NCBI GenBank assembly: GCA_018670095.1 | Contig: JABHRR010000014.1 | Coordinates: 1-47,094, forward strand | Direction: 5' to 3' | Origin: Candidatus Woesearchaeota archaeon | GTDB taxonomy: Archaea; Nanobdellota; Nanobdellia; Woesearchaeales; GW2011-AR9 | DNA length: 47,094 nt | In this document: positions 14,868 to 37,189 of the stretch, one piece after another | How positions within the stretch are numbered: position 1 is the first letter of the stretch | How the letters are laid out: every line of letters starts with the position of its first letter | Translations under genes and position numbers: made by a program | The notes under the pieces: model-generated | What the model saw: the letters and a program-made list of their open reading frames with translations, nothing else | Told to the model about the DNA's origin: nothing | Databases searched by the model: none

Positions 14868-15930
14868 GACAATAACAATAATGACATTAACTTTTCTTCT
14901 ATTGATCAATCTAGCTTTGGCCCAATCAGGCTGTTTTCTTTATTCCGATAGTCCTTTTTATTGTTCAGATTTAAGTATTGAAGAAGCGGAAACTGAATGT
15001 TTCTTTTACGATGATTGTGTTTTAGAAGAATCTTTCTTCTTAGAAGAAAGTTGTAATGATAAACAATTATTTACTGAATGTAAAGTTGTTTTCTGTAAAG
15101 ATACTTGTACAGAACAATTGTTAAGTCAATGTGAAGCTGGTCCTGTTCCTGCTGGAGAAGAAGAGTTGTGGTGTGTTAAAGGCGGCTGTTGCCAATTTGA
15201 AGATTATTGTCAATATAAAACTAGTGAAGGTCTTTGTGAAATTGAAGCAACCAATAATGATTTTCAAGACTTTTCATTTACCGAATCTCCTGAAGAAGAA
15301 TGCTTAGAATCTTGTTTACAACCTCAAGTAATTGAAACTGATATCATTGAAAATATTTCAAACATTAATGAAAACATTACCAAAATAGAAGATGATTCTT
15401 CAAATAAAGTTTTCTTTTGGCTTTTCCTCTTGATGTTTGCTATTATTGTGATTATGATTATTCACCATTTTTACCATTTCCAATATTTTAAGAAAAATTT
15501 TTGGAATAAAGTAAAACATCTTTTTACTAAGAAGAAAGAAATAATTAAAACAAAAGAAGAATTAAAATGGTACTCACCTAACTTTTCCAATCCTCTTTTA
15601 AGAAAAGAAATTAAATCAATGAAACAAAAAAGAGAACACAAAATTAAACAAAGAAATCGAGAAGATTATTTAGCTGCTGTTGGTTTAATTCCTAAAAAAA
15701 TAACTAAAGACGAATTCTCAAAATTAAGACAAGTAGTCAGTGCCCATCAAAGAAAAAATAAGTATCATCCAGAACCGAAAAAAGAATATTTCCATAATCT
15801 TGAACAAGTTGTTGAAAAGATTAAAGAACGGGAAGAAAATTTCAGAGAAAGATTAACCCACCCTAAAAAATTTAAAGAAAAGAAAGATGTTGATGAACTA
15901 ATTGCTCGATTAAGAAAAATAGCTAAATAA
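14860..15930 (+). CDS. Cys-rich single-pass membrane protein with basic cytoplasmic tail (356 aa)
   Basis: Signal peptide 1-21 (LLLINLALAQ). A Cys-rich ectodomain (22-180) begins SGCFLYSDSPFYC and contains GGCCQFEDYC. One membrane helix (about 183-207) is followed by a strongly basic cytoplasmic tail of about 150 residues, partly coiled-coil-like. The ectodomain is homologous to residues 29-140 of the 2126-residue protein at 19984 (SGCYVYPEASEDLYC..., SPGCCKIVGKDFC). That protein has the same order of signal, ectodomain, helix and basic tail, so this is a minimal version of the giant. It overlaps the preceding gene and must be co-transcribed with it. Function unknown; a membrane anchor or receptor for the surface assembly is a guess. 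Confidence 0.75.
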   Translation: MNKTITIMTLTFLLLINLALAQSGCFLYSDSPFYCSDLSIEEAETECFFYDDCVLEESFFLEESCNDKQLFTECKVVFCKDTCTEQLLSQCEAGPVPAGEEELWCVKGGCCQFEDYCQYKTSEGLCEIEATNNDFQDFSFTESPEEECLESCLQPQVIETDIIENISNINENITKIEDDSSNKVFFWLFLLMFAIIVIMIIHHFYHFQYFKKNFWNKVKHLFTKKKEIIKTKEELKWYSPNFSNPLLRKEIKSMKQKREHKIKQRNREDYLAAVGLIPKKITKDEFSKLRQVVSAHQRKNKYHPEPKKEYFHNLEQVVEKIKEREENFRERLTHPKKFKEKKDVDELIARLRKIAK

Positions 15931-16553: not shown

Positions 16554-16556
16554 ATT

Positions 16557-17744: not shown

Positions 17745-17763
17745 AACAATTGAGGAATAATAA

Positions 17764-25900: not shown

Positions 25901-26364
25901 TTTATTCTCCAGCTGGTAAAACAGTGGCTCGTCCAGTTTCCACGGTGAGAAGAGCTGTTCCTGGTGTGAGGGTTGCTAAAACCAAACCAAAAATATTAAG
26001 TGACTGGAAAAACAAATTGTTACAACTTAAAAAATCTCGTACAGAAAAATTAAAGCAACGACAACGTCAAGGTGTATTTGGAAAATTCAGTCCGCAATCG
26101 CAAAAAATTCCTCATTTAGAAAGGTTTATTCAGAAAAAGAATCCGGACTTGTCACATCTGCAAAGTATGGCTCATAAATATTCTCAACATAAAAAAGAAA
26201 TTAAACCTGGCTTGAAAAGTGGCGAGAAATCCATTTTTAATAAATTAGAAAGTATTGCTAAACAAACTAAGGATAAAAAAATTCATCAAGTTGTTAATAA
26301 AACTGAAGCTAAAGATATTTTTAGTAAACTTAAAACTATCAGTAAAAAAAGAAAGGGTAAATAA
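19984..26364 (+). CDS. Giant multidomain membrane-anchored surface protein (2126 aa)
   Basis: Signal region MIKKRG plus hydrophobic stretch, to about residue 27. Domains in order: a Cys-rich module (29-140) shared with the 356-residue protein; two carboxypeptidase-regulatory/PEGA-like beta domains (about 170-248, 252-330); an SdrD-B-like domain with DSNNNKEIDSDD (336-425); a fibronectin-III-like domain (about 435-528); a long Cys-rich region (about 530-870); several Ig-like repeats (about 870-1750); thrombospondin-3-like calcium loops (about 1820-1850, DTDGDKVLDSCDQCP, and about 1861, DSDGDSLPDKWE); one membrane helix (about 1945-1975); and a basic cytoplasmic tail of 150 residues. It is anchored outward. 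An adhesin or scaffold role is inferred from architecture. The next gene starts 1 base after the stop. Confidence 0.8.
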   Translation: MIKKRGMILVVLSLFLLAGFSFLSLADVSGCYVYPEASEDLYCQAGILDTEAQVDCEFYDSCNLEEHFIPASDCSELDECEEIICNVDCQTHALGICTQLGGTAVPDEEYDARCSPGCCKIVGKDFCKYNLFKFECDDKAKKLGSSEPPIFRIDVDLNECNIGVCQVELKKASLTILVQDEQQKPISGAEITLTTTIKQTTSTSGKTTFANINSGTYSLTVTATDYASGSLVVSLSSGEEAEQTIIIKKVENIAALEGTVTDSSGILKGATVSWTGPVSGQTSTDEQGKYNTGQLPQGDYSFTASKVGFKSKVEKYPVNTKGTFPLNFELTPVEALGISGKVFIDSNNNKEIDSDDQVVYGATFYLDGVFKGYSVFPEGSFNIEVEVISVTGKETHNLSAVYQNYQFEEEFVFEKGISLTNQNLLLTTYIGECTEPGTELPVEEFTVIPLPGEEVLKIEWTKPCPEVIGYKVIKTHEGVEIEPLSASPAESFILDHDVKWGQSYTYKIIAYYDKNRETVSEIEATMNVGDKRCESKYSETEGWDLFCLVGDKPTRKTIWSCDNFNQLNPVQNCGGDPALNEDYYCAQTTESSASCQNAGNCGASPQQADPFGLYYDRQKCYGTGSPEEGTTNYCYFDFTDTIFNECKDCTKIDNCFDYQSKDACEINNCLGTKCDWLDDAKNTELVDYSLINLPVFTTPETGTGYCVEEGYEENLLDPEGDDYCSSCNPLANLFENNFCTAEVCSGLGRCFSAFNLAQCSSCGEFPNTESNCYAYNTELECAGQQNLQRDPYGEIINSNDECGWNKCLWTGASNGYSENGCVKDGNGDGTSDCESFSSATDQKNCKLDNSAPKTKILPEGINVISFATPEIFFMANDIHNYFNQENFLGTASYCLTSTTFDSCFDKDVQQAFTEVSYPGKALTESITLNLINSSFLQGKKINGETYRLKYYSEDKYFNQESVQETFVYIDNVVPEFEINENINTIEDITTLSVYLTGTKEIMSCTFTLNQILPLGGKKVIAVPREEEIKNALFENLKGVKFDLDVTCIDDAGNENSKVKNYIFDLEERIDIINPEMESAVSETEISFKVNTVAGASCGLYLTANNEKVADFISDQEGKEHQTESLLGFFEKEYVGEYKVVCNELLDQTETYEDYFNFVIDFSSPETQIILKEGSREEKPTPFGWEEFFIETVTIDFACSATGFSCDKTYYCLGDNCQANFFTAEKSNYQEYTASLELLESSTICYYSTDLANNPVYQPLCGKVLIEGYGITLENPEQHFYQEEQWGISNQPVFTFQFFTKVPTTECRIDFSPEFDYDALPVHKNKEINADKKYLFDNFPESIFTSYPDSCSGDDSSCVKTVYVKCKDLDGKIGPETKIFLEYDSTAPEITAAFADPDEIFEGVTTELFVDTDDKTLCKFSDDSEGAGSQEYGNMEYSFPGTIDKILNLNHQEIFNINFIGPTKQYSLYTQCTNGAADLSLTEQINFSVDYSQAGYILENTLLPSAYIWGQNITISVGTSKNAFCKYDFNSEGYKPFINPENQQIHTADISISEEGQYIIPVKCVMGDHTISGEIKFTYDLTAPTVTNIEDGNLTCGREEINLIVNTDEINDIGGYVYQVYNQGKDFEVVKKEEQKKSKLAALANFAAKIENNKSVKKEINKTVSAPKAVNPGKVGAMVLNGEAGPESPLKIPTAELILGNYYTVKVKVIDGAGNEGEFYESDGIAVVNQSYFACQEKKAPEVTFTLNNSLCTSTMVEMTCQDNSGCDNFLYGKSGTKELCNTTEIYTGKKITFNTNGWICYSVSDYQNETHKDSKQISFDDTDGDKVLDSCDQCPETATGKIVNDLGCADNEVSEEEIKEDSDGDSLPDKWEKSYAAFDCLLDYTNQDSDDNGVIDSEEDYDLDTINNYQEYLFGNNPCLADAPLTDLTEEPSAPYSPPTLPAGGDNTLATIFLLLGIMMVFGGIGYLVYYYIYSPAGKTVARPVSTVRRAVPGVRVAKTKPKILSDWKNKLLQLKKSRTEKLKQRQRQGVFGKFSPQSQKIPHLERFIQKKNPDLSHLQSMAHKYSQHKKEIKPGLKSGEKSIFNKLESIAKQTKDKKIHQVVNKTEAKDIFSKLKTISKKRKGK

Positions 26365-26365
26365 A

Positions 26366-26929
26366 ATGAGATTAAACAAAAAAGGGATGGGTGTTGGTCA
26401 AGTATTTGTATTTATTATTGCGGCATTAACTTTTGCCTTGATTATGATTTTCGGATATCAATCTATTTCTCGATTTATAGCTAGTGGCGAAGACGTAGCT
26501 TTTGTCCAGTTTAAAACTGATTTAGAGGGTTCTATTAAAACAATTTATACTGAATTTGGGGCAGTTAGAATTGAAAAATTTTACCCTCCTGAAAAATTTG
26601 AACATATTTGTTTTGTTAATATGAATTACGATTTTACTGTTGAAGAAAAACAGGCATTGTGTAAAGAGAATCCTCTTGCTTGTGATGTTTTAGAAGAAGC
26701 TCAAGCGGGCGTTGCTGAAGGAAGATGTTTTACGGGTTACGATTGTGTTGAAAAAAATGTTTTTTTTAAACCACAATCTACTGTTCCTATTAAAGTTTAT
26801 CAAATTTCCATCTCCGATTCTGAAGGTGAAGAAGAATTTGGTTTCCTTTGTAAAAAAATAATTCAGGGCTTATTTTCTCTTGGTGTAGAAGGTAAAGGCG
26901 ACCACACAGAATTGTTTAATGTGGGATAA
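26366..26929 (+). CDS. Pilin-like protein (187 aa)
   Basis: It starts MRLNKKGMGVGQVFVFIIAA. The KKG or G-Q junction followed by a hydrophobic helix of about 22 residues fits a class III (prepilin) signal. The ectodomain of about 150 residues has six to eight Cys (ICFVNMNY, LCKENPLACDV, RCFTGYDC, FLCKK). An in-frame upstream start at 26255 would lie inside the giant gene, while the ATG at 26366 follows its stop by one base and gives the expected N-terminus. It opens the long run of pilin-like genes, translationally close to the giant. I do not recognise the ectodomain. Confidence 0.75.
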   Translation: MRLNKKGMGVGQVFVFIIAALTFALIMIFGYQSISRFIASGEDVAFVQFKTDLEGSIKTIYTEFGAVRIEKFYPPEKFEHICFVNMNYDFTVEEKQALCKENPLACDVLEEAQAGVAEGRCFTGYDCVEKNVFFKPQSTVPIKVYQISISDSEGEEEFGFLCKKIIQGLFSLGVEGKGDHTELFNVG

Positions 26930-26971
26930 ATAAATTATCATTATCATAATTATTACTAATTAATTTAGAGA

Positions 26972-28114
26972 ATGGTCAAAAACAAATCAGACAAAAATAG
27001 GAGATTTTCACATCGGCATTCTAATAAATCAGGACAAGTCCAGTTAACATTTAGTTGGATTTATATCATGCTGGCCGGGGCGATAATTCTCTTGTTTTTT
27101 GTTGGTCTTGTTTTTAAACAACAAGCAGCTGCTGAAGAATCTTTAGCTTTTGATGTTGTCCAAATCATGGATTCCATTTTTACTGGTGCTCAAGTTTCAG
27201 AGAAAACTAAAAATTTCATTGATGTTAGTGGGCTAGCAGATTATACTTTATCATTTACTTGTGAGGATGGTTTATCGGAATTTGGAATTAAAGGTCAAAG
27301 TAGTCCTGCCCAAAATGTTGTTGATCCCATTTTTTCCCCTCAAGAAATTAAAACTACTCTTTTGATTTTGTGGAGTTTACCATACAAATTACCATTTAAA
27401 GTGATTGACTTTATGTTTGTTACTTCCATTAACACTAAATATTTTATTCTCGGTGATGGAAGTGGTTTTTCTGAAGAATTTTATAATGCTACTAAAGACT
27501 TTAATCGTGTCCTTGTTAGTAACCCTGCCGAGATTGATCCGGGAAAGAATTTTCAAGTTAGAATAATTGATTTAGATGGTGTCTATGTTCAATCAGGCCA
27601 ACCAGTTCCAGAAAAACTTTCTTCGTTAGATGATAACAAAGTTACTGCCGTTTCTTTTACTGCTTCCAATATGGTGAATTATTTTCAAAAAGAAGGCAAC
27701 TTTTGGAAACAAACAAATCTTAATCTTGTGCAAATAATTTCTTTATCCGGAGAGAGAAATGCTGCCAAGTACGCCGCCATTTTTGCTGCTAATGATAAAG
27801 TTTACAAATGTAATATGAATAAAGCTTTCTTGCGTTTGAAATATTTAATTGAAATTTATGAAGAAAAAGCTAAAGAACTTGAATCGCATTATAATCTTAA
27901 CCCAGAATTACAATTAAATAAAGATTGTTTGAATTATATTCAAAAAGGCGGTCATGAACAAAATATTAATGGTGCTTTAGAGTCATTAAAAAATATTGTT
28001 AATGGCTGTTTGCTTAAACCAAGTTTGTGTGGTGGTTTATTGCAACCAGCAGAAGATTTAAAACAAGCCAATATCGATTTAGGGGAAAAAGGGGATTGTT
28101 TAACCTTATACTAA
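26972..28114 (+). CDS. Pilin-like protein with 330-residue ectodomain (380 aa)
   Basis: A basic N-region of 27 residues ends in SNKSGQVQLTFSWIYIMLAG. The S-G-Q junction plus helix is a plausible prepilin-peptidase site. The ectodomain is predicted alpha/beta, with four or five Cys clustered near the C-terminus (NKDCLNYIQ, GCLLKPSLCGG, GDCLTLY). There is no obvious TATA box in the 42 bases upstream, so read-through from the previous gene is likely. The next gene begins after one base. No known domain is recognised. Confidence 0.72.
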   Translation: MVKNKSDKNRRFSHRHSNKSGQVQLTFSWIYIMLAGAIILLFFVGLVFKQQAAAEESLAFDVVQIMDSIFTGAQVSEKTKNFIDVSGLADYTLSFTCEDGLSEFGIKGQSSPAQNVVDPIFSPQEIKTTLLILWSLPYKLPFKVIDFMFVTSINTKYFILGDGSGFSEEFYNATKDFNRVLVSNPAEIDPGKNFQVRIIDLDGVYVQSGQPVPEKLSSLDDNKVTAVSFTASNMVNYFQKEGNFWKQTNLNLVQIISLSGERNAAKYAAIFAANDKVYKCNMNKAFLRLKYLIEIYEEKAKELESHYNLNPELQLNKDCLNYIQKGGHEQNINGALESLKNIVNGCLLKPSLCGGLLQPAEDLKQANIDLGEKGDCLTLY

Positions 28115-28115
28115 A

Positions 28116-28634
28116 ATGTTAAGAAAAAAGAAGGGGCAAGCACGAATGAACGAAACTATTGCTATCGTTTTTATTTTCTTCGTATTAATTCTTTTTGGGA
28201 TCATGTTTTTTTATCAATATCAAAAAGTAGCGATTAAAGAAAAGAATGAAGAACTTCTTGGAAATCGAGCCATGGATACTACTTTAAAAACTTTATTTTT
28301 GCCTGAATTAATTTGTACGAAAGGCGAAGCTGAACCAGAAGATAACTGTTTTGATTTAATGAAATTAAGATATGCAGAAAAAACTTTTACTGCTCATTTA
28401 ACTGATTATTATTATGAAATATTTTCTTATGCTAAAATTACTGTGCAGGAAGTTTATCCAGGAAATAAAACTTATTTGTTGTATGATAAAGAAAAACCTC
28501 CTCAAGAAGACGGTTCTCAAGGTTGGACCAGAAAAGAACCTACTTACTTTGTTGTTACTTTGAAAGATGAGAATAATTCAGAAGAAAAAGCTAATTATGG
28601 TTTTGGTTATATTAATATAGAGGTATATTCATGA
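28116..28634 (+). CDS. Pilin-like protein (172 aa)
   Basis: The N-terminus LRKKKGQARMNETIAIVFIFF has a K-G-Q junction and an alanine/glutamate-type N-terminal helix continuing for about 25 hydrophobic residues. That is very close to the archaeal pilin/archaellin pattern. The mature ectodomain of about 130 residues contains two Cys (ICTKGEAEPEDNCFD) and beta-rich sequence to the end. The stop overlaps the next start (ATGA), so translation is coupled to the 190-residue pilin-like gene. The ectodomain family is not recognised. Confidence 0.75.
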   Translation: MLRKKKGQARMNETIAIVFIFFVLILFGIMFFYQYQKVAIKEKNEELLGNRAMDTTLKTLFLPELICTKGEAEPEDNCFDLMKLRYAEKTFTAHLTDYYYEIFSYAKITVQEVYPGNKTYLLYDKEKPPQEDGSQGWTRKEPTYFVVTLKDENNSEEKANYGFGYINIEVYS

Positions 28635-29203
28635 TTGAAACTAAAAAAAGAGGTCAAGTAGAGATCATTGGTTTAGTAATCATTGTTATCTTGATTGCTT
28701 TAGGAATGCTGTTCATGGCTAAGTTTGCTTTGAAAGAAGATGCTAAAAAGAAAATATTTACTCGTAAAGGTCTTGCTTATAGTACAATGTCCTCTTTAAT
28801 GAAAACTACTATTTCTGATCAAACTTGTTCTGGCAGTTATCAAAAATGGGTGCAACCTCAGTTAGGTAAAGATTTATTGGAAGATTGTGCAAAAAATTAT
28901 GATTATTATTCTGTTGATGATCCTGGCAGTTATTCATTGTATCAATGCCAAGAACTTCATAGTTGTCATTTTGCTAATCAATTGATTAAAGAATTATTGG
29001 ACGAAACATTGGGTGAGTGGAATAAAAAATATGTTTTTCAAGTAAAATTAATTCGGGCACAAGAAGATAAACCAATTACTATTGTTGGTCCAATAAAAGT
29101 TGGCGGTGGTTGTCCTAGATCTAAAGATCGAGATGTTTCCGGATTGTTTCCGTTACATACAGATGCCGGTTTGATTGAAAGTGAGTTATATTTGTGTGAT
29201 TAA
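28631..29203 (+). CDS. Pilin-like protein (190 aa)
   Basis: It begins TKKRGQVEIIGLVIIVILIA, an R-G-Q-V-E class III junction with an acidic residue near position +3, as in type IV pilins, where this Glu aids assembly. The ectodomain of about 150 residues holds eight Cys (CSGSYQKW, LEDCAKNY, YQCQELHSCHF, GGGCPRSKD, LYLCD). It is the last gene of this run. A hairpin and a palindrome lie between it and the next pilin-like gene, which has its own promoter. Confidence 0.75.
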   Translation: MIETKKRGQVEIIGLVIIVILIALGMLFMAKFALKEDAKKKIFTRKGLAYSTMSSLMKTTISDQTCSGSYQKWVQPQLGKDLLEDCAKNYDYYSVDDPGSYSLYQCQELHSCHFANQLIKELLDETLGEWNKKYVFQVKLIRAQEDKPITIVGPIKVGGGCPRSKDRDVSGLFPLHTDAGLIESELYLCD

Positions 29204-29248
29204 GTCTGTTTTTAGTGGTTTCTTGGCTAAAGCATTCAAAACATACAT

Positions 29249-29265
29249 AAAAACTTTCAGTTTTT
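29249..29265 (+). terminator. Hairpin AAAAACT-TTC-AGTTTTT, possible terminator
   Basis: A perfect 7-bp stem with a 3-base loop, its 3' arm ending in five T, 46 bases after the stop of the 190-residue pilin-like gene and before the next promoter. In archaea, T-runs alone can terminate, so the stem may be incidental. Confidence 0.4.
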
Positions 29266-29269
29266 AGTC

Positions 29270-29304
29270 GTTGCTAAGATTAAAATCTTCGCAACATTTA
29301 TATA
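29270..29304 (+). promoter_or_regulatory. Promoter with upstream palindrome for the second pilin-like run
   Basis: A 26-base imperfect palindrome (GTTGC, AAGATT, AATCTT, GCAAC) occupies 29270-29295. A TATA box TTTATATA follows directly at 29297-29304. The gene starts at 29360 with a good ribosome-binding site, GAGGTGA, at 29347-29353. A dyad abutting the TATA box is where an archaeal activator or repressor dimer would bind. Confidence 0.5.
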
Positions 29305-29359
29305 CTATTTTCCTTTCTTTTAATATAAATAATATTAACTAAAATTGAGGTGAATTGAA

Positions 29360-29707
29360 ATGGTTTTTAATAAGAAGGGACAAGGTTTGTCTTTAACAAC
29401 AATTATTGTGGCTGCTTTGGCTTTAATTGTACTAGTAGTTTTAATTATGGTTTTTACTGGTAGAATTGGAATTTTTCAGGGTGGATTAGATAAGGCTTCT
29501 CAAGCAGAACTGGTACAAATGAAAATAACTTATGGTGATTGTCACCCAAGTGCAACTGCAGAAGTAACTTTTAGTAATGACTTTAAGATTGCTGAATCTG
29601 AAGAATCTAAAGAATTAGCTAAAGCTCGGTATAAAGACGACATCAGTGCTTGTAAAGGTTATTCAGATAAAGGTACTTGTGAATCATCTGGCTGTAAATG
29701 GAACTGA
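29360..29707 (+). CDS. Small pilin-like protein (115 aa)
   Basis: It begins MVFNKKGQGLSLTTIIVAAL, a K-G-Q class III junction followed by a helix of about 20 residues. The ectodomain of about 80 residues is mostly helical and ends in a Cys-rich knot (ISACKGYSDKGTCESSGCKW), a pattern like short secreted Cys motifs. It is preceded by a strong Shine-Dalgarno sequence and its own TATA box, so it heads an operon. The stop overlaps or abuts the next start. No named family is recognised. Confidence 0.75.
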   Translation: MVFNKKGQGLSLTTIIVAALALIVLVVLIMVFTGRIGIFQGGLDKASQAELVQMKITYGDCHPSATAEVTFSNDFKIAESEESKELAKARYKDDISACKGYSDKGTCESSGCKWN

Positions 29708-29709
29708 AG

Positions 29710-30096
29710 ATGAATCTCTTTAACAAAAAAGTAAGCAAAAATTCTGAAAAGAATTTTTTGACTTTCTTTTCTAAAGAAAAGAAAGCTAGTGCTAACATGT
29801 GGTGGATTATTATCGGAGCAGTTATTGCTCTGGTAGTAGTTATCATTTTAATGGTTATCTTTTCAGATACCACCGCTGATTTATCGACTGGTTTATCTAG
29901 TTGTGAAGGTAAAGGTGGCATTTGTATTAAAGGAAGTTGTCCACTTGGCTCTTTACCTGCGAGTGCTTTTGGTTGTAACGATAATACTAATCCTGATTGT
30001 TGTTTAGGCACCCCTAAAAAAACAGCAGATGTTGCTGGCGGATGTTCTGAATCTGTTACAGCAAAAAATGTTGAATATTGCCTTAAGAAAAATTAA
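29710..30096 (+). CDS. SANMWW-type membrane/pilin-like protein, copy 1 (128 aa)
   Basis: A Lys-rich N-region of about 30 residues is followed by KKASANMWWIIIGAVIALVV, a helix almost identical to that of the next gene. The ectodomain is short and Cys-rich (SSCEGKGGICIKGSCP, FGCNDNTNPDCC, GGCSES). KKA replaces KKG at the possible processing site. I take the ATG at 29710, two bases after the previous stop; an in-frame ATG at 29698 overlaps the previous gene and adds only four residues. The extended N-region is absent from copy 2. Confidence 0.7.
   Translation: MNLFNKKVSKNSEKNFLTFFSKEKKASANMWWIIIGAVIALVVVIILMVIFSDTTADLSTGLSSCEGKGGICIKGSCPLGSLPASAFGCNDNTNPDCCLGTPKKTADVAGGCSESVTAKNVEYCLKKN
29782..29855 (+). 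repeat. Near-identical DNA segment, copy 1 (pairs with 30112-30185)
   Basis: These 74 bases encode the SANMWW membrane helix and differ from the second copy, 330 bases downstream, at only two synonymous positions. The flanking ectodomain sequences are clearly diverged, so the helix segment is either newly duplicated or kept uniform by gene conversion. Confidence 0.8.
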
Positions 30097-30105
30097 TCAT
30101 TTAAA

Positions 30106-30435
30106 ATGAAAAAAGCTAGTGCCAACATGTGGTGGATTATTATCGGGGCAGTTATTGCTCTGGTAGTAGTTATCATTTTAATGGTAATTTTTTCCGATAC
30201 TACGACTGATTTAGAAAAAGGCTTATCTTCTTGTGAAGGTAAAGGCGGCGTTTGTGTTTTGGCTTCTGGATTGGGTTGTCCAGGAAATACTTTTTCTTCA
30301 AGTGCATTTGGATGTAATAATAATGCAGTTTGCTGTATTGGTTTGCCTAAAAAATGTACTGATGAAACTGATTGTGGAAAAAATGAAAAATGTGAAAATT
30401 ACGGGGAAAATAAAAATTATTGTTTAGAAAAATGA
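30106..30435 (+). CDS. SANMWW-type membrane/pilin-like protein, copy 2 (109 aa)
   Basis: It starts directly MKKASANMWWIIIGAVIALV, the same helix as copy 1 without its long N-region. The ectodomain keeps the order of copy 1 (SSCEGKGGVCVLAS, SAFGCNNNAVCC) but ends with a four-Cys DETDCGKNEKCE segment like the motifs in the nearby lipoproteins. It is the product of a tandem duplication. Its stop overlaps the start of the 43-residue gene (ATGA). Confidence 0.72.
   Translation: MKKASANMWWIIIGAVIALVVVIILMVIFSDTTTDLEKGLSSCEGKGGVCVLASGLGCPGNTFSSSAFGCNNNAVCCIGLPKKCTDETDCGKNEKCENYGENKNYCLEK
30112..30185 (+). repeat. Near-identical DNA segment, copy 2 (pairs with 29782-29855)
   Basis: Second copy of the helix-coding 74-base segment, with two synonymous differences from copy 1. 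Confidence 0.8.
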
Positions 30436-30563
30436 AATTCAATAAAAGAGGAACAGCCGAAAGAGCCAATATCGCCACGGTGATAAAAGTTATTTTATCA
30501 GTCTTGTTAGGATTAACTTTCCTTTATTTTATTTGGACATTAAGAAGTAAAATAGGACTATGA
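30432..30563 (+). CDS. Micro pilin-like protein (43 aa)
   Basis: Translation of this short frame gives MKFNKRGTAERANIATVIKV followed by more hydrophobic sequence and a basic end (LRSKIGL). It has the NKRG junction and helix of the neighbouring pilin-like proteins but essentially no ectodomain. Both ends are coupled by ATGA overlaps to the genes on either side, which strongly supports translation. It may be a helix-only assembly component or a regulator of the pilin-like complex. Confidence 0.7.
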   Translation: MKFNKRGTAERANIATVIKVILSVLLGLTFLYFIWTLRSKIGL

Positions 30564-30700
30564 ACAAAAAAGGAATGGAAGTACAGAAATTAATAATTAT
30601 CTTTTTAGCGATAGCACTTCTCTTATTTCTCTTGTGGTGGTATAGTGATTTAGGTGGCGGAATAGAAGGGTTATTAGATAAAATGGGGGCTCTGTTTTAG
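30560..30700 (+). CDS. Micro pilin-like protein (46 aa)
   Basis: MNKKGMEVQKLIIIFLAIAL, then LLFLLWWYSDLGGGIEGLL and a short tail. It carries the NKKG junction with Glu at the third residue after G, as in pilins, one helix and about 15 further residues. It overlaps the previous stop by four bases and its own stop immediately precedes the next ATG. It is too short for most gene callers. Co-translation with its neighbours makes it credible. Confidence 0.7.
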   Translation: MNKKGMEVQKLIIIFLAIALLLFLLWWYSDLGGGIEGLLDKMGALF

Positions 30701-31480
30701 ATGGCTTCACAACTTTTGCAAAAATTAATTTTTTATATCATTCCAATTATTGTTGCTGCCCTTTTATTATTCAATTATTATGGTGGTGATGCCAGTGCTT
30801 TTGAAAAACTTAAAAGTGGTGTGGAAGGAGCAAAAGATTATGTCCCTAACATTTCTATTGGTGATAAAGGTTTAAGTACTTCCAAACCAACTATTCCTGC
30901 AGAACATAAGGCTCAACTTTTAAGATTGAACGAAACAATTAACCAGATGTTAAAAAGTTCTAAGCAAAATTGTTTTGCTAATTATGGTGGGTTTTCTGAA
31001 TTGGGCGAGAAAGGCACTTCGTTTGTGATGACTTATTCTGAAAGCGGAACAAAATTTAAAGTTTTTGGCGGTGCTGGTGGAGATCAACTAATTACAGATT
31101 TATCATTTGAGATTGAGGGTATGATCCCTTGTGTTATTGCTGGTAGTTCGACTATTACTGAAAATTTTGAAAACAGTTTTTTGACTGGAAAAAATATTGT
31201 TGGTAATCATTTCATGAATGTTAATGTAATTGCATTAAAAACTGATGATGGTGGGGCTTTTGGTTTAACAGAAAATAGAATTGATTCTGGAAGCGGTCCT
31301 AAAGATTTTGAAGATGCCGGATTTATTTATACTCCTGACAATGAACACATTTGTTTCTTCCCTACTGTTGATGGGGGAAGTGATGCCGACGGTTTAGATG
31401 ATGACTTTTTAGGAGAAACTCCTAATGCAGCTACTGCTGTCCCTCGACAAGTAAGTGAGGGTAGATTAAAAACATGTTAA
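30701..31480 (+). CDS. Single-pass surface protein without the KKG motif (259 aa)
   Basis: An N-terminal helix (LLQKLIFYIIPIIVAALLLF) lacks the basic KKG/KKA junction of its neighbours, so it may stay uncleaved or use another signal. The ectodomain of about 230 residues has only a few Cys and contains a beta-rich, Gly/Asp-rich part (FGGAGGDQLITDL, GGSDADGLDDDFLGE) that could bind calcium. It starts directly after the previous stop and overlaps the next gene by seven bases, so it belongs to the same operon. Family unknown. Confidence 0.7.
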   Translation: MASQLLQKLIFYIIPIIVAALLLFNYYGGDASAFEKLKSGVEGAKDYVPNISIGDKGLSTSKPTIPAEHKAQLLRLNETINQMLKSSKQNCFANYGGFSELGEKGTSFVMTYSESGTKFKVFGGAGGDQLITDLSFEIEGMIPCVIAGSSTITENFENSFLTGKNIVGNHFMNVNVIALKTDDGGAFGLTENRIDSGSGPKDFEDAGFIYTPDNEHICFFPTVDGGSDADGLDDDFLGETPNAATAVPRQVSEGRLKTC

Positions 31481-32346
31481 AATATAAAAAAGGAATCACT
31501 GCTGGAACTTTAGTAATTATCATCTCAGTAATTGCTGCTTTTATAATTATTGCCAGTGTTATTGTTGGTTTTATGGGTAAAGTTGAAACTAAAGAAGCAG
31601 AATTACTTTGTAAAACTAGTATTGATGCTCGAGCAGCCAGTACCATGCAAGTTGGCAGTGCTGATGTCGCTTTAGCGCCAGTTTTATGTAAAACTCAAGA
31701 TAAAGAAATTACCGGTAATCGTGAAGAAATTAAATCTCAATTAGCCTATATGATGGCTCGTTGTTGGTGGATGTTTGGGGAGGGTAGATATGAAGAAAAT
31801 TTAGGCGATCCTGATGTTATTAGAAAAACTTTTGGCGTTCCTGCTGGTGAAAACAAATGTTTCTTATGTTATACCACAATTATTGATGAAACAGAAATTG
31901 AGGGTGGCACTGTTGGAGCAAGAGAGATGTATGAATATATTCAAGAAACTGACCATCGTGATATTAAAGGTTTAAAATATTTAGATTATTTCCAAAGTTA
32001 TGGCGGCCCTGGTAAAGTAATGGTTGGTGAAGATATTAAGGCTGAAAACGCTTATGGAGTAGTTTATTTAGTAAAAAATAAAGAAGAAAGTGGTGGTTGG
32101 TGGGCCACAGCGATAGCAACAGTTGCTATAGCAGGAACAGTTATTTGTATTATAGCCGAACCTTGTGGAGCTATTGCTGGAGTAGTAATGGCTGGGACAG
32201 CAGGATTTGCAGGCACAGTTGCATATAAGACTCATAAAAGAAATTTTTATGGTGATGATGAGAGGGATGTAAGTGTGGTTATCTTAGATCATATGAAAGG
32301 AATAGAAGCTGGGGGCTGTGTTGTTAAAGATTTAGGTGGCCAATAA
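31474..32346 (+). CDS. Pilin-like protein with two extra hydrophobic segments (290 aa)
   Basis: It begins MLKYKKGITAGTLVIIISVI, with a KKG junction and a first helix. The ectodomain contains conserved-looking Cys and Trp clusters (ARCWWMFGEGRY, NKCFLCYTTIID). Near the C-terminus two closely spaced hydrophobic segments occur (WWATAIATVAIAGTVICIIA and GAIAGVVMAGTAGFAGTVAY), followed by a polar tail with HKRNFYGDDERD. A hairpin insertion into the membrane is unusual for pilin-like proteins. Co-translated with the previous gene. Confidence 0.7.
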   Translation: MLKYKKGITAGTLVIIISVIAAFIIIASVIVGFMGKVETKEAELLCKTSIDARAASTMQVGSADVALAPVLCKTQDKEITGNREEIKSQLAYMMARCWWMFGEGRYEENLGDPDVIRKTFGVPAGENKCFLCYTTIIDETEIEGGTVGAREMYEYIQETDHRDIKGLKYLDYFQSYGGPGKVMVGEDIKAENAYGVVYLVKNKEESGGWWATAIATVAIAGTVICIIAEPCGAIAGVVMAGTAGFAGTVAYKTHKRNFYGDDERDVSVVILDHMKGIEAGGCVVKDLGGQ

Positions 32347-32375
32347 TATTTATTTAATTAACTTAACAAAAAGAA

Positions 32376-32381
32376 GAGGTG
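32376..32381 (+). promoter_or_regulatory. Ribosome-binding site GAGGTG deciding the start at 32388
   Basis: GAGGTG six bases before the ATG matches the 3' end of archaeal 16S rRNA. Its GTG (32379) is in frame and could be taken as a start, but as part of the Shine-Dalgarno sequence it is better read as leader. Confidence 0.6.
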
Positions 32382-32387
32382 TTTGAA

Positions 32388-33797
32388 ATGATATTTAATA
32401 ATAAAAAAGGTGCAGCCCAATTATGGTGGATTTTAATGGTTGCTTTTATAGCTATTGTGGCTGGAATTTTAATTATGCTTTGGTTTCGAGGAGGAGGAGA
32501 AAAACTTTTCGGTGGAATTGGTGAAAAGATAGATGAGTTTGGCGATTGTGATAAAGATCGTGTTTCTAATATGTTCGATAAATGTCCTTGCTTGTCAACA
32601 AAAGGTAGTGAGATGAAAGATTTACGTGGTTGTCCGCAGGGAACTACTATAGAAAGAGCTGAATGGGACCGACAGACTTGTAATTGGCTTGTACCTATTG
32701 GTGGCGACCCTGAAAATCCTGCAAAAGAATGTCCGGATAATACAGTTTGTAAATCTCGTTGTGAGATTATTGGTGGTGTAGTTGAAGCCGTTCCAGAATC
32801 TGCTGGTCAAGGTGTTGCTACTCAGGGTGATTTACAAATCACTAAATTTACTGCTGGTGGTAAATCAGTTGGAGAAAAATATAATAAAGACTTAGCTGGT
32901 ACAACCGAGTTTGAATGGATTGAAGTTAAATCTCAAGCAAAAAATAAAGGTGAAGAAACAATTACTAAAAATTTCAAAACTAGCGTTTTTGTTTGTGATG
33001 CAACTAACCATGATGATTGTGTTAAGAAAAATCTTTACGAATCTGATTCTCCTACCAGTACTTTTGTTCCTAATTTGGTTACTACTCATGAAATGGATAA
33101 TGTGAATGATCAAATTGATTATTCTAAGTTCGTTAAAGTTGGTGAAGATGGTGACGCTTGTGATGGACCAAACATTCAAGAATGTTGGTTAAAGATTAGA
33201 GTTGATTCTGAAAACGATTTGGCTGAAAAAGAAGAAACAAATAATGAAAAAGGAATCAATGTCGTTTTGAAAAATCAGAAATTTGAATTGTTTCAATTTG
33301 AAAGTTTTAAATCAATTGAATTGGTTATCAATGATGATTTAGGTCCAAACCCAGAACAAAAACCAATCACTCAAATGTGTCGTGGTTATATCGGAGATGC
33401 TTCTGGTTATGATTGTTCAAGTCTTGATAACTCTTGTGGTGACGGCGATTTCCCTAAATCTGCAACATGGAATCCCGAAAATAATGGTTGTTTAATTGTT
33501 GTTTCTGAAGATGACCCTACTACTAATGATTGTGGTTATGCTGGAGCAGGAGATGAAGTTATCATTTCTCACAATTCTCCCAAATTGATTAGTAACTTAA
33601 AGACATCTTTTGTTACTACAACTCTCACCGATGCTGCCGAAAATGCGATGGCTTATTCCTGGAAATCTACCTCTGCTGGTTCATTGATTTGTCAGAAAGG
33701 AGTATGGAAACTTTGTAATCCTGCTGGTAATAATAAGCAATTAAAGTTTGGTAACAAATTTTTCAAATGTGAAAGTAGAAGATGGATACCTAAATAA
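32388..33797 (+). CDS. Pilin-like protein with calcium loop and CARDB-like domain (469 aa)
   Basis: It starts MIFNNKKGAAQLWWILMVAF, with a KKG junction, then helix. After the helix comes a thrombospondin-3-like segment (FGDCDKDRVSNMFDKCPCL, then DLRGCPQG). Next is a beta-sandwich of the CARDB/APHP type (about residues 148-300), with its hallmark end LKIRVDSENDLAEKEETNN before the last strand. A Cys-containing C-terminal region follows (CRGYIGDASGYDC...). CARDB domains are adhesion modules. It is preceded by a 41-base gap with a good ribosome-binding site. Confidence 0.75.
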   Translation: MIFNNKKGAAQLWWILMVAFIAIVAGILIMLWFRGGGEKLFGGIGEKIDEFGDCDKDRVSNMFDKCPCLSTKGSEMKDLRGCPQGTTIERAEWDRQTCNWLVPIGGDPENPAKECPDNTVCKSRCEIIGGVVEAVPESAGQGVATQGDLQITKFTAGGKSVGEKYNKDLAGTTEFEWIEVKSQAKNKGEETITKNFKTSVFVCDATNHDDCVKKNLYESDSPTSTFVPNLVTTHEMDNVNDQIDYSKFVKVGEDGDACDGPNIQECWLKIRVDSENDLAEKEETNNEKGINVVLKNQKFELFQFESFKSIELVINDDLGPNPEQKPITQMCRGYIGDASGYDCSSLDNSCGDGDFPKSATWNPENNGCLIVVSEDDPTTNDCGYAGAGDEVIISHNSPKLISNLKTSFVTTTLTDAAENAMAYSWKSTSAGSLICQKGVWKLCNPAGNNKQLKFGNKFFKCESRRWIPK

Positions 33798-33819
33798 TTT
33801 TTTTTTAATTTTTTTAAAA
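33798..33819 (+). terminator. T-rich tract between pilin-like genes
   Basis: Two runs of seven or more T (about 33800-33806 and 33810-33815) directly follow the stop at 33797. Oligo-T tracts terminate archaeal RNA polymerase. Here they may reduce read-through rather than stop it, since the next gene has no clear promoter of its own. Confidence 0.4.
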
Positions 33820-34536
33820 ATGAAAATAAACAAAAAAGCGATAATGATAAAGTTTTTAGTAACACTTTTACTAGCGATTATTATCTTTGCTCCTGCTTGT
33901 ATGTTCGCTTCTAAATTTTTTCAATTAAGCGGTCAAGCAAAAGATAATTTTGTTGATTTCGTTAATGAAATTAAAGGGATAGAGAAAACACAACTTGGCG
34001 AGAGAAAAAATTTCATTTTAATTATTGATAAACCTACAGCTTTAGTTTACTTTGAACCTAACAAGAACCAAGTAAGAGTAGATGTTGATGCTAATTGTGT
34101 CATCACTTGTTCGGATTATCATTTTGTTTTTGAAAAGCCAGGTCAATGTGAAGAGGATAAAGGGTGTTTATGTCTTTTTAGGGAAGTAGAATATGATGTT
34201 CCTTTAACTGAAAATTGGTTTTCTGTAAAACCTGTTTCTGCTATTTGTGAATCTTTTGACATTAATTTAAAATTAAATGATTGTAGTATTGGTGTTCCTG
34301 AAGATGTTAATTCCTATTCTTGTTCAGACGGTTTTGCTATTGAAAGACATGTTGCTGATGAAGCAAGTTGGAGAGTTGACGCTTTCTTTAAAGCTCCTCG
34401 AAGAATCTCACTCACTTTAGAAAAAAGACCTCATCAGATAAATATATACTCAAATAATGCGGTAGAAATACCTGACGAACCATTTGAAGGCGAAGGCGGT
34501 TCATTCGGTGGTGGTGGAGCAGGAGGAACTCACTAA
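33820..34536 (+). CDS. Pilin-like protein with Gly-rich C-terminus (238 aa)
   Basis: From the ATG at 33820: MKINKKAIMIKFLVTLLLAI, with KKA at the junction and a hydrophobic helix. The ectodomain has about eight Cys (NCVITCSDY, QCEEDKGCLCLF, ICESFD, DCSIGV, YSCSDG) and ends in a flexible Gly-rich tail (GGSFGGGGAGGTH). An in-frame upstream start at 33748 would lie within the previous gene and break the pattern. The next gene starts immediately after the stop. Not a recognised family. Confidence 0.7.
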   Translation: MKINKKAIMIKFLVTLLLAIIIFAPACMFASKFFQLSGQAKDNFVDFVNEIKGIEKTQLGERKNFILIIDKPTALVYFEPNKNQVRVDVDANCVITCSDYHFVFEKPGQCEEDKGCLCLFREVEYDVPLTENWFSVKPVSAICESFDINLKLNDCSIGVPEDVNSYSCSDGFAIERHVADEASWRVDAFFKAPRRISLTLEKRPHQINIYSNNAVEIPDEPFEGEGGSFGGGGAGGTH

Positions 34537-35196
34537 ATGAATAAGAAAGCTGCCAGTGTAATTATGATTACTTTTGAAATTCTTGTCGTTCTTCTAGTTG
34601 TTTATATGACAGTTTCCATCGGTAAAGCTTATGGTGAATCAGATCAAGTAACTAAAATTAATGCCGCTGAAGAATTGAGAATGATGATTGACACTTTGGT
34701 TGCTGTTCCCGGTGATGCTATTGTTAATTATCCGCAAGAAGTTTCTAAATTCTCTTTTATCTTAACACAAGGTTCAATTTCAGTTTTTAATAAAGGTGAA
34801 GAAGAAAATGTTTGGATCGTAACTACTTTCTTCCTTCCCGATAATTATCAAGCAGAAGGAAGTGTTTCAGAAGCCAATTATATCTGTTTAGAAAAATTAA
34901 ATAAAAAGATTATTTTGAAAAAATGTCTTGACGTAGCCGATAATGAAGTTCCACCTCAGTTAGGTTCCCCAGATAGTTCAGGAATTTACACTTATGATGC
35001 TGGAATTCTTGCTACTTCGCTTTATTACAGATATCAAGATGGATCATGGGAATGGAGTCCTGATAAAATTAATTGGATGTCAGTTAACACTATTGTTGTG
35101 AGTGGTGGAGAATTTGATAAAGAAAAACCAGTCCAAGAAAATCAAAAACTAATCAGATATTTACAAAAATTCAACCCCCCTGTAGAAAATGAATAA
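34537..35196 (+). CDS. Pilin-like protein (219 aa)
   Basis: MNKKAASVIMITFEILVVLL: KKA junction and a helix of about 22 residues with an embedded Glu (TFEILVV). The ectodomain of about 190 residues is beta-rich with two Cys (YICLEKL, LKKCLDV) and a Trp-rich part (GSWEWSPDKINWMSV). The ATG follows the previous stop with no gap and the stop overlaps the next gene by eight bases, so it is translated in an operon. Function unknown. Confidence 0.7.
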   Translation: MNKKAASVIMITFEILVVLLVVYMTVSIGKAYGESDQVTKINAAEELRMMIDTLVAVPGDAIVNYPQEVSKFSFILTQGSISVFNKGEEENVWIVTTFFLPDNYQAEGSVSEANYICLEKLNKKIILKKCLDVADNEVPPQLGSPDSSGIYTYDAGILATSLYYRYQDGSWEWSPDKINWMSVNTIVVSGGEFDKEKPVQENQKLIRYLQKFNPPVENE

Positions 35197-35656
35197 GAAA
35201 GCACAATTTGCAGCTGCAAGGAAAACCATCTATTGGATGATTGCCGGATTAGTTATTACTATGGTCGTAATTGGTTTTGCGATGGTGATTGCTAGTTATC
35301 GAAACAATTTAGCTAAAGTGCCGCCAGAGATTAGAGCAGAATTGATTGCTTTAAGATTTACTAATAATCCCGATTGTTTTGCTTATAATGTTAGTGATAA
35401 AGTTCTTCTGGGAACGATTGATTTGACTAAGTTTAATGAAGAAAATATGTTGAAATGTTATAGTACTGCTTCTGCTGGAGGAATTAAAACATTTAATTTT
35501 AGATTGAAACTGGAAAGTTCCGGCGAAGAAATAAGGACTGATAAATATGCGCACGTCGATAAATTTACCATTTTCAAAGAAGTTTTAGTTAAAAGACAAA
35601 CTGGTTTGTTTAAAGATCGATTAATTATTTATGTACAGGAGAAAATAGGAGTATGA
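35189..35656 (+). CDS. Pilin-like protein (155 aa)
   Basis: MNKKAQFAAARKTIYWMIAG: the KKA-Q junction is followed by an Ala-rich stretch and a helix of about 22 residues (LVITMVVIGFAMVIASY). The ectodomain of about 110 residues has two Cys (NPDCFAYN, MLKCYST), probably one disulfide. It overlaps both neighbours (8 and 4 bases). Size and shape fit a minor pilin. Confidence 0.7.
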   Translation: MNKKAQFAAARKTIYWMIAGLVITMVVIGFAMVIASYRNNLAKVPPEIRAELIALRFTNNPDCFAYNVSDKVLLGTIDLTKFNEENMLKCYSTASAGGIKTFNFRLKLESSGEEIRTDKYAHVDKFTIFKEVLVKRQTGLFKDRLIIYVQEKIGV

Positions 35657-36066
35657 AAAGATTCAATAAAAGAGGAATGCTGGACGATTTGTTTGACTTT
35701 TTATTTACTATCACTACTGCTTTCTTTTTATTAATTTTCCTGGGAGCAATTCTTAACGGCGGTGTTAATGAAAGTAATGAACAAGCAGTTAGTCGTGTGG
35801 CTGAATTTAGACAAACGGAATCAGCAGTAAATAATCTCCGTATTCAAATTTATCAACAGGACAATTTTTTTACAATAGAAGAAATTGATGATCAAGTAGC
35901 TGGTAGTAAAGTTTTAGCAGGAAGGGTTATCACTGGTTGTTCTGATTATATCACAAGGACTGATTGTACTAGTGATGCTGTTAGAATTTATACTAATACC
36001 CCTGGTTTCTCTTGCGATTGGGATGAGGAAGATGGAGAATGTTTTGTTTCACCATCAATAACATAA
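35653..36066 (+). CDS. Pilin-like protein (137 aa)
   Basis: MKRFNKRGMLDDLFDFLFTI: NKRG junction with acidic residues at +3/+4, then a hydrophobic helix. The mature part of about 100 residues has four Cys near the C-terminus (GCSDYITRTDCTS, FSCDWDEEDGECFV). The start overlaps the previous stop by four bases. It resembles a short minor pilin with a disulfide-stabilised tip. Confidence 0.7.
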   Translation: MKRFNKRGMLDDLFDFLFTITTAFFLLIFLGAILNGGVNESNEQAVSRVAEFRQTESAVNNLRIQIYQQDNFFTIEEIDDQVAGSKVLAGRVITGCSDYITRTDCTSDAVRIYTNTPGFSCDWDEEDGECFVSPSIT

Positions 36067-36076
36067 AATAAATAAA

Positions 36077-37189
36077 ATGAATAAGAAAGGCAGTTTAATG
36101 CATTGGACAATTTTTGGGATTATGGTAGCTTTAGGAGTATTTTTCTTTTTCAGTAAAACTGGTCAAGTTGATGTTGGGGTGAAAGGTGAATGGTCAACAG
36201 ACTTTTTAGTTAATAATGTTTTAGCTGCAGAAAAAGAATCTTTATCTGTTGATAGTGTTGCTATAAAAACTGGCAGAGAGATTGCTCAAGAACTGGCTGA
36301 GAATTCTGGTTTCCCACCTGGAAAGAGTTCTGATTGTGCTACCATTAATAGTATTAATCTCTGGAATAAAGAAGATAAAAAATGTTTTCCAGACACTAAA
36401 GTTTCATTAAATGAACATGGACAAAAAAAATTAACTGAAAAAATCCCTCAAAATTCTTATTTCAATATTGAATTTAAAGATACTTTCTTCCTTGCCGATG
36501 GAGATAAAAAAGATATCATTACTCCAGCAGGAAAATATTATTACCAAACAGATTTTATTGTTGATTTAGGTTATTCGTTCCAAGAGTATGATTCGTTAAT
36601 CTCTACAGCGATAAATCTTCTTGCCACTTGTCAGAACGTTAATGATTTATCTACTTGCCTTACTGCTAATAAACTTCCTAATTGGAAAGATACTTCTTGT
36701 AATACTGAAAATTTCTTTGCTGGTAGAGAAATTGGTTTTTGTGTCATCTCAACAAGTTTAAATTCAGTTAAATATAAGTTTGCTTTAGATTTCACTCCTA
36801 CTGGTGCTTTATCCGTTGATAATACACAAGTACAAACTCAAACTGATCGTTATGAAATCTCTGTTGCTAAAGATGATACTGCTGATAGCTACAAAGTTTA
36901 TTATACTGATTATTTAGCTTTGGCTAGTCAAACTGGTAAAGCGATAGATATCTTTGCACAAGTGCCAACAAACTTACTTTATTCTCACAGTTCTTGGACT
37001 ATCAATAAAGCTGATCTAAATACCGATTGTACTACAAAAGAAATTGCTAAAGGTTACCTTTGTGAAGATAAAATGGTTTATATTGTTGGTAAAAGTTCCC
37101 TTTCTCAAGAGTATGGAAGTTATATTTTTGCGGTAACTACGCTTAAATCTGGAACAGAATCAGACATTCAAAGTTTTACCTCCTCTTAG
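36077..37189 (+). CDS. Pilin-like protein with 340-residue ectodomain (370 aa)
   Basis: MNKKGSLMHWTIFGIMVALG: NKKG junction, a short helix of about 18 residues, then a large ectodomain with a few Cys (SSDCATI, KKCFPD, TCQNVNDLSTCL, SCNTENFF, GFCVI, DCTTKE, YLCED). It is the last gene of the pilin-like series, 10 bases after the preceding stop. The downstream 69 bases hold the promoter of the RPA gene. No known domain is recognised. Confidence 0.7.
   Translation: MNKKGSLMHWTIFGIMVALGVFFFFSKTGQVDVGVKGEWSTDFLVNNVLAAEKESLSVDSVAIKTGREIAQELAENSGFPPGKSSDCATINSINLWNKEDKKCFPDTKVSLNEHGQKKLTEKIPQNSYFNIEFKDTFFLADGDKKDIITPAGKYYYQTDFIVDLGYSFQEYDSLISTAINLLATCQNVNDLSTCLTANKLPNWKDTSCNTENFFAGREIGFCVISTSLNSVKYKFALDFTPTGALSVDNTQVQTQTDRYEISVAKDDTADSYKVYYTDYLALASQTGKAIDIFAQVPTNLLYSHSSWTINKADLNTDCTTKEIAKGYLCEDKMVYIVGKSSLSQEYGSYIFAVTTLKSGTESDIQSFTSS

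What the first reader, a model, noticed from the sequence alone, without database searches (positions are those of the whole stretch)
26366..37189. A run of about 17 pilin-like genes with diverse ectodomains
Nearly every gene here, plus the one at 12393, begins with a short basic region ending in [KR][KR][GAS], often followed by Q, then one hydrophobic helix. This is the class III/prepilin pattern. Ectodomains range from none to about 440 residues and share little sequence, but many are Cys-rich. Many neighbours overlap by 4-8 bases, so this is one built apparatus, not scattered genes. Known archaeal pilus, archaellum and Ups loci have a few pilins plus an ATPase and platform protein; none is seen here. 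I infer an undescribed surface machine with many minor pilin-like subunits, paired with the giant proteins upstream.
Basis: partly seen in the sequence, partly recalled or inferred. Interest (0 to 1): 0.82.

Follow-up and report, generated by a model that had tools for sequence, protein, structure and literature searches.

The report
Giant pilin gene cluster in Woesearchaeota
A symbiont-type archaeon carries, in one conserved gene cluster, about 16 different pilin-like proteins plus giant secreted proteins; these are probably the missing filament and tip parts of a pilus motor known across this archaeal group without its pilins, and so a likely tool for gripping other cells.

Summary
Of the 17 genes at 26366-37189, 15 pass a class III (prepilin) N-terminal test against 15 of 245 background ORFs (p = 2e-14). 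g15 starts MNKKAQ but fails the strict test; g10 is not prepilin-like. The cleavage site is under selection: in 66 orthologues of g03, position -1 is always A, G or S and +1 always Q. Gene order is conserved. A core (KRGQ-type pilin, giant secreted protein, g01-g04) recurs in other families of the class; g05-g17 are largely an expansion in the window's family.

The genome has one on other contigs: a FlaK/PibD-type peptidase, a GspE/FlaI-type ATPase and a 731-aa highly diverged TadC-like platform. Most of the window's family has no other detectable platform. A CpaF/TadC/coiled-coil locus without pilins is already described in DPANN archaea (PMC11291902) and is probably this motor.

Best reading: an archaeal type IV pilus variant whose g01-g04 plus giant protein form a tip/priming complex like FimU-PilV-PilW-PilX-PilY1, enlarged by a dozen extra subunits. 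Filament, major pilin and motor pairing are inferred. No solved fold matches g02 or g03. New variant of a known kind.

The parts
7252..12318 (+). U1688: giant secreted protein, Sec-type signal peptide, 60 Cys
   Evidence: Found at this place in 15 of 24 stretches from relatives; no Pfam hit
12393..14867 (+). U824: large class III (pilin-like) protein, SRKG|QITVFIILG
   Evidence: Class III test passed; syntenic in 18 of 24; shorter KRGQxTxFIxxG counterparts precede the giant protein and g01/g02 in most class-level loci
14860..15930 (+). U356: signal peptide, Cys-rich domain homologous to the U2126 N-terminus, one TM, basic C-terminal tail
   Evidence: 31% identity over 136 aa to U2126, E 1e-12; TM segments; same family only, 10 of 24
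19984..26364 (+). U2126: giant protein; signal peptide, CarboxypepD_reg domains, C-terminal TM and basic C-terminal tail; candidate tip adhesin or anchor
   Evidence: Pfam PF13620 E 2e-22; syntenic in 22 of 24; TM at about 1947
26366..26929 (+). g01 core pilin-like, NKKG|MGVGQVF
   Evidence: 23 of 24 genomes; -1 always G or A in 22 orthologues; class-level orthologues
26972..28114 (+). g02 core pilin-like, 380 aa
   Evidence: Orthologues in 52 of 60 relatives and 122 of 187 class genomes; AF2 pLDDT 90.6: long N-terminal helix, beta domain, helical C-terminus
28116..28634 (+). g03 core pilin-like, KKG|QARMNETIA
   Evidence: -1 A/G/S, +1 Q and +6 E in 66 of 66; AF2 pLDDT 92.8: helix 4-60 plus alpha/beta head
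28631..29203 (+). g04 core pilin-like, KRG|QVEIIGLVIIV
   Evidence: Q+1 and E+3 in 23 of 23; 23 of 24 genomes
29360..29707 (+). g05 pilin-like, 115 aa, after a 156-bp gap holding a TTTATATA TATA-box-like stretch
   Evidence: Class III test; 20 of 24 genomes; gap sequence
29698..30096 (+). g06 pilin-like, Cys-rich, tandem paralogue of g07
   Evidence: Class III test; 63% identical to g07
30106..30435 (+). g07 pilin-like, Cys-rich (9% Cys)
   Evidence: Class III test
30432..30563 (+). g08 minimal pilin-like, 43 aa
   Evidence: Motif; same family only
30560..30700 (+). g09 minimal pilin-like, 46 aa, MNKKG|
   Evidence: Motif in 12 of 12 orthologues
30701..31480 (+). g10 anchored protein without class III motif
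   Evidence: Motif absent here and in 14 of 15 orthologues
31474..32346 (+). g11 pilin-like, with a second hydrophobic segment
   Evidence: Motif in 15 of 16 orthologues; second segment
32388..33797 (+). g12 pilin-like with long Cys-rich ectodomain
   Evidence: Motif in 13 of 13 orthologues; CARDB only sub-threshold; start ATG read from the sequence
33820..34536 (+). g13 pilin-like (start ATG 33820)
   Evidence: Motif in 13 of 13 orthologues
34537..35196 (+). g14 pilin-like, MNKKA|
   Evidence: Class III test; 13 of 24 genomes
35189..35656 (+). g15 pilin-like, MNKKA|Q, fails the strict test (basic residues before the helix)
   Evidence: 13 of 24 genomes
35653..36066 (+). g16 pilin-like, NKRG|MLDDLFDF
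   Evidence: Motif in 8 of 8 orthologues, same family only
36077..37189 (+). g17 pilin-like, MNKKG|, last gene before an OB-fold (RPA-like) gene
   Evidence: Motif in 11 of 12 orthologues

Best explanation
The cluster encodes the subunits of a type IV pilus-like filament of Woesearchaeota. Prepilins g01-g09, g11-g17 and U824 are inserted by Sec, cut after K/R-[GAS] by the FlaK/PibD-type peptidase (contig C71), and pushed out by the GspE/FlaI-type ATPase (C47) through the diverged TadC-like platform (C89). The conserved core (U824 type, giant protein, g01-g04) acts as a tip or priming complex carrying a giant adhesin, by analogy with FimU-PilV-PilW-PilX-PilY1. g05-g17 are additional, individually conserved subunits that build an enlarged tip or decorated shaft, most likely for attachment to other cells or surfaces. 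Shown by computation: motif, its conservation, gene order, presence of peptidase, ATPase and a platform-like protein. Inferred: cleavage, pairing of this motor with these pilins, filament formation, tip role, adhesion.
For: Class III enrichment 15/17 against 15/245. Cleavage-site selection: g03 -1 only A/G/S and +1 Q in 66 of 66, g04 Q+1 in 23 of 23, g01 -1 only G/A in 22 of 22. Gene order: g01-g04 in order in 55 of 57 loci where all four were found, g02-g04 in 70 of 71; the core recurs in 8 genomes from other families of the class. g03 is modelled as a 57-residue N-terminal helix plus alpha/beta head at pLDDT 92.8, and g02 also has a long N-terminal helix. Motor: A24 peptidase in 55 of 60 relatives; the ATPase in 59 of 60, a close relative of it matching GspE (2oap, 1e-31) and FlaI (4ii7, 1e-18); platform in the own genome and at some level in 184 of 187 class genomes, aligned to canonical T2SSF over 116 columns at E 1e-5, probability 82%. 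Elimination: 29 of 37 window-family genomes have no PF00482 platform, yet most keep the pilin cluster. Of genomes with a strong platform match (E < 1e-150) 118 of 132 have g02, against 1 of 52 with only a weak one (hand count).
Against: No motor gene lies near the cluster in any stretch examined, so the pairing rests on elimination and co-occurrence, and the latter follows phylogeny. No PDB fold match for g02 or g03, no Pfam or NCBIfam pilin family for any cluster protein tested. No major pilin is identified. The ATPase's neighbours include three 5-TM paralogues unlike known pilus parts. Platform homology to T2SSF is weak. No filament has been seen.
Confidence: 0.62

Rival explanations
1. A pseudopilus-type secretion apparatus: the pilin-like proteins form a short, retained piston that exports proteins (possibly the giant Cys-rich proteins) rather than a long fibre.
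For: Many distinct single-copy pilin-like subunits and no obvious major pilin; a four-gene minor-subunit core recalls gspHIJK (recalled, not tested); the motor type is shared by secretion systems and pili.
Against: U2126 and U356 carry their own signal peptides and C-terminal TMs, so need no such export. In a single-membrane archaeon a piston has no outer membrane to cross.
Confidence: 0.13
2. A static envelope complex: the proteins are cleaved or anchored and assemble around U2126/U356 as a cell-surface scaffold or junction, not a filament.
For: Giant membrane-anchored partners in the same cluster; g10 is anchored without a class III motif; two subunits have almost no ectodomain.
Against: A conserved class III site serves no obvious purpose without an assembly motor, and the motor is near-universal in the same lineages.
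Confidence: 0.14
3. The pilins belong to the sporadic canonical FlaI/TadC system, and the near-universal ATPase/platform serves something else such as the three 5-TM proteins next to it.
For: The orphan ATPase's conserved neighbours are 5-TM and coiled-coil proteins, not pilins.
Against: 29 of 37 window-family genomes have no canonical PF00482 platform while the pilin cluster is in nearly all.
Confidence: 0.07
4. Ordinary uncleaved membrane anchors that merely resemble prepilins.
For: Basic residues before a TM helix are common; 6% of background ORFs pass the loose test; no pilin family hit.
Against: Strict A/G/S at -1 with invariant Q at +1 across 66 divergent orthologues has no explanation for an anchor; a matching peptidase exists.
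Confidence: 0.04

Closest known systems
Archaeal type IV pili, the ten variants of Makarova, Koonin and Albers 2016 (PMC4858521)
   Same: Class III prepilins, FlaK/PibD-type peptidase, secretion ATPase, TadC-type platform, several minor pilins, large adhesins; modular, with pilins often encoded apart from the motor. That paper notes a nanoarchaeal ATPase whose pilins could not be found.
   Different: More pilin genes in one conserved array than the 'at least 5' minor pilins described there for methanogen loci; no detectable similarity to known pilin families; ATPase, platform, peptidase and pilins on separate contigs; platform about 730 aa and highly diverged.
DPANN locus 2 (CpaF, TadC, coiled-coil proteins) of Hamm et al. 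2024 (PMC11291902)
   Same: ATPase, platform and coiled-coil genes conserved in Woesearchaeota and relatives match the anatomy of the motor locus found here.
   Different: That locus lists no pilins; the cluster described here would supply them. Identity of the two loci was not tested sequence by sequence.
Bacterial T4aP minor-pilin operon with PilY1 (M. xanthus priming complex, PMC7541494)
   Same: Several different minor pilins plus one giant protein encoded together (operon layout recalled from general knowledge).
   Different: No sequence or fold relation detected; here a dozen additional pilin-like genes follow in the window's family.
DPANN pilin islands in Makarova et al. 2019 (PMC6393860, Fig. 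2A)
   Same: Arrays of unrecognised pilins inferred from context in DPANN genomes.
   Different: Those islands contain the ATPase and TadC; the loci shown could not be compared sequence by sequence.

Membership tests
Archaeal type IV pilus system | Prepilins with class III signal peptides | tested here: met
Archaeal type IV pilus system | A24 (PibD/FlaK) prepilin peptidase in the genome | tested here: met
   L004:5734-6582, PF01478 E 8.5e-16 and FlaK E 1e-11 (below NCBIfam's equivalog cut-off); 55 of 60 relatives
Archaeal type IV pilus system | GspE/FlaI-type assembly ATPase | tested here: met
Archaeal type IV pilus system | TadC/GspF-type platform | tested here: inconclusive
   PF00482 finds none in the own genome; the c4 family matches T2SSF only weakly and by profile comparison E 1e-5, probability 82%; next to the ATPase in many genomes
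Archaeal type IV pilus system | Pilin architecture: long N-terminal helix plus globular head | tested here: met
   g03 helix 4-60, g02 helix 29-75; other subunits not modelled
Archaeal type IV pilus system | Ectodomain fold like a solved pilin | tested here: not met
   No significant PDB match for g02 or g03; archaeal pilin heads are diverse, so not a strict requirement
Archaeal type IV pilus system | Identified major pilin and visible filament | not testable with these tools
   Candidates only: g05-g07, or the two paralogues beside the peptidase (L004:4241-4789, 5069-5599)
Archaellum | Archaellin family subunits | tested here: not met
   No Pfam or NCBIfam hit in the cluster proteins tested; FlaH/ArlH not searched
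Bacterial T4aP/T2SS minor (pseudo)pilins | Sequence or fold homology to known minor pilins or PilY1 | tested here: not met
   Pfam on all members of the g01, g03 and g04 alignments and PDB fold search of g02, g03
DPANN locus 2 of PMC11291902 | CpaF, TadC and coiled-coil genes together | tested here: inconclusive
   Same anatomy in relatives' loci, but in the own genome ATPase and platform are on different contigs; Nha. antarcticus sequences not compared

The most novel reading that the evidence does not exclude
A multi-subunit surface machine in which some 16 different, individually conserved pilin-like proteins form one defined hetero-complex (not a homopolymeric pilus) around giant membrane-anchored proteins, driven by a class-wide motor with a strongly diverged platform and three 5-TM helper proteins; that is, a new kind of type IV filament-derived apparatus used in host contact.
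Probability: 0.22. Interest if true: 0.82.

Novelty: new variant of a known kind. Interest (0 to 1): 0.62.

Why it matters
Published accounts of DPANN surface structures report pilus motors without identifiable pilins (PMC4858521, PMC9563170, and locus 2 of PMC11291902). This cluster gives a concrete, sequence-defined candidate set for the missing subunits across a class of archaea thought to live attached to other cells. It makes the question of how they hold their hosts testable: which proteins to look for in proteomes and cryo-ET, and which cleavage sites to assay. An array of about 16 distinct, conserved pilin-like genes would also be unusually large and asks what so many different subunits are for.

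Tried and rejected
Naming the cluster proteins by Pfam and NCBIfam: no pilin family. Finding a canonical T2SSF platform in the own genome with PF00482: none; the diverged family was found only through relatives. PDB profile search with the platform: nothing. Fold search of g02 and g03: nothing significant. Looking for motor genes within the stretches around the cluster in relatives: none. Sigma-70 promoter and terminator scan: at chance level and not suited to archaea. Considered and dropped: a provirus (the locus sits among MCM, TBP and RPA-like genes and is conserved in place across the order) and an archaellum (no archaellin family).
Full report
What is there. The window lies on contig C45 of a 1.2 Mb, 84% complete genome. 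Its nearest named relative with this locus is a Candidatus Woesearchaeota MAG (SI075_bin52; g02 89% identical). Seventeen ORFs on the + strand fill 26366-37189; seven junctions overlap by 4-10 bases and two abut. A simple class III test passes 15 of 17, against 15 of 245 background ORFs (p = 2e-14). Pfam gives no hit at its own cut-off for any of the 17, and NCBIfam none for those tested.

Are they processed prepilins? The strongest evidence is evolutionary. Across 66 orthologues of g03, position -1 is A (27), G (21) or S (18) and nothing else, +1 is Q in all and +6 is E in all; -2 and -3 are K or R in about 92%. In g04, Q+1 and E+3 are invariant in 23; in g01, -1 is G or A in all 22. That restriction is what a PibD/FlaK-type peptidase imposes and has no reason to exist in a plain anchor. 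Motif retention in orthologues is high for nearly all families except g10 (1 of 15), g14 (8 of 13) and g15 (6 of 13). AlphaFold2 models g03 as one helix from residue 4 to 60 plus an alpha/beta head (pLDDT 92.8) and g02 as a helix 29-75, a beta domain and a helical C-terminal domain (pLDDT 90.6). The layout is pilin-like, but neither has a significant match among solved structures.

Conservation. g02 is found in 52 of 60 relatives and 122 of 187 class genomes. Gene order U1688-U824-U356-U2126-g01...g17-RPA-like gene is largely kept in the window's family; in other families of the order the left half and g01-g05 are kept and the rest thins out or is replaced by other class III genes. In 8 genomes from other families of the class, g02, g03 and g04 lie in order, in most cases with g01, a giant secreted protein and a short KRGQxTxFIxxG protein before them; g05-g17 are not recognisable there. 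Where all four core genes were found, order was kept in 55 of 57 named loci. So the 17-gene array is an ancient minor-pilin core plus an expansion.

The motor. The same genome has one A24 peptidase (C71, beside two further pilin-like paralogues), one GspE/FlaI-type ATPase of 770 aa (C47) and one 731-aa multi-TM protein (C89). A close relative of this ATPase matches solved GspE, FlaI and CpaF, and the own ATPase hits the corresponding NCBIfam models. The 731-aa family sits directly or nearly beside this ATPase in many relatives, gives only weak T2SSF hits and aligns to canonical T2SSF over 116 columns at E 1e-5 with 82% probability. I take it as a strongly diverged TadC; that is likely, not proven. 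The ATPase is in 59 of 60 relatives, the peptidase in 55 of 60, and the platform at some level in 184 of 187 class genomes. Canonical T2SSF platforms are absent from 29 of 37 window-family genomes, including several at 97-100% completeness. The pilin cluster therefore has, in most of the family, no other candidate motor. Strong platform matches go with g02 (118 of 132) and weak ones do not (1 of 52), counted by hand; this follows phylogeny, so it is consistent with pairing but not independent proof.

How it most likely works. Prepilins are inserted, cut after K/R-[GAS], and added by ATPase and platform to a growing filament. g01-g04 with U824 and the giant U2126 resemble in layout the bacterial minor pilin/PilY1 priming complex (PMC7541494), hence the tip proposal. 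U2126 has a C-terminal TM and a basic tail, so it may instead anchor the structure at the base; the data do not decide. The role of g05-g17 is open: individually conserved, mostly single-copy genes suggest fixed positions rather than interchangeable major pilins. Candidate major pilins are g05-g07 or the two genes beside the peptidase. A TATA-like TTTATATA in the only large gap (29204-29359) suggests a second transcription start for g05 onward, by eye only.

What is known. Archaeal T4P are modular, with pilins apart from motors, and a nanoarchaeal ATPase lacked identifiable pilins (PMC4858521). DPANN pilin islands of unrecognised proteins were noted (PMC6393860). Two conserved DPANN loci are published; the second has CpaF, TadC and coiled-coil proteins and no pilins (PMC11291902), the anatomy of the motor locus here. 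Nanohaloarchaeal pilus loci had no annotated pilins (PMC9563170). I found no description of this cluster, but only open-licence papers were searchable and supplements were not.

Limits. Genomes are MAGs of varied completeness. The class III test is home-made. Start codons were chosen by motif. Only g02 and g03 were modelled. Filament, cleavage, adhesion and motor pairing are inferred.

Noticed in passing
window 15996-19896: Three paralogous secreted proteins (U185, U395, U710) sharing an N-terminus (MKLExIT...), two with an LDL-receptor class A domain (PF00057 E 1e-8 and 1e-6), inserted between U356 and U2126; not seen in the same-genus relative G001.
   Followed up: partly
L003:8460-10198 and counterparts in L226-L236: Three tandem paralogous 5-TM proteins plus two coiled-coil proteins form a conserved block next to the ATPase in most genomes examined; function unknown.
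   Followed up: partly
L004:4241-5599: Two paralogous class III pilin-like genes directly beside the prepilin peptidase in the own genome; candidate major pilins.
   Followed up: partly
L003:6791-8248: Membrane protein next to the motor block whose relative has a DUF11 (Ig-like) match; conserved in the window's family.
   Followed up: no
L003:17146-17751: Highly repetitive WAYNTDD-type (PQQ-propeller-like) repeat protein running off the contig end.
   Followed up: no
window 37259-38368: RPA-like OB-fold gene with a long acidic VEKAEPVEK-type repeat tail, conserved directly downstream of the pilin array.
   Followed up: no
L236:8446-9436 (G040): In one relative two small proteins with an N-terminal TM, one with a class III motif, lie between the ATPase and the platform; a second platform copy lies elsewhere on the same contig.
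   Followed up: no
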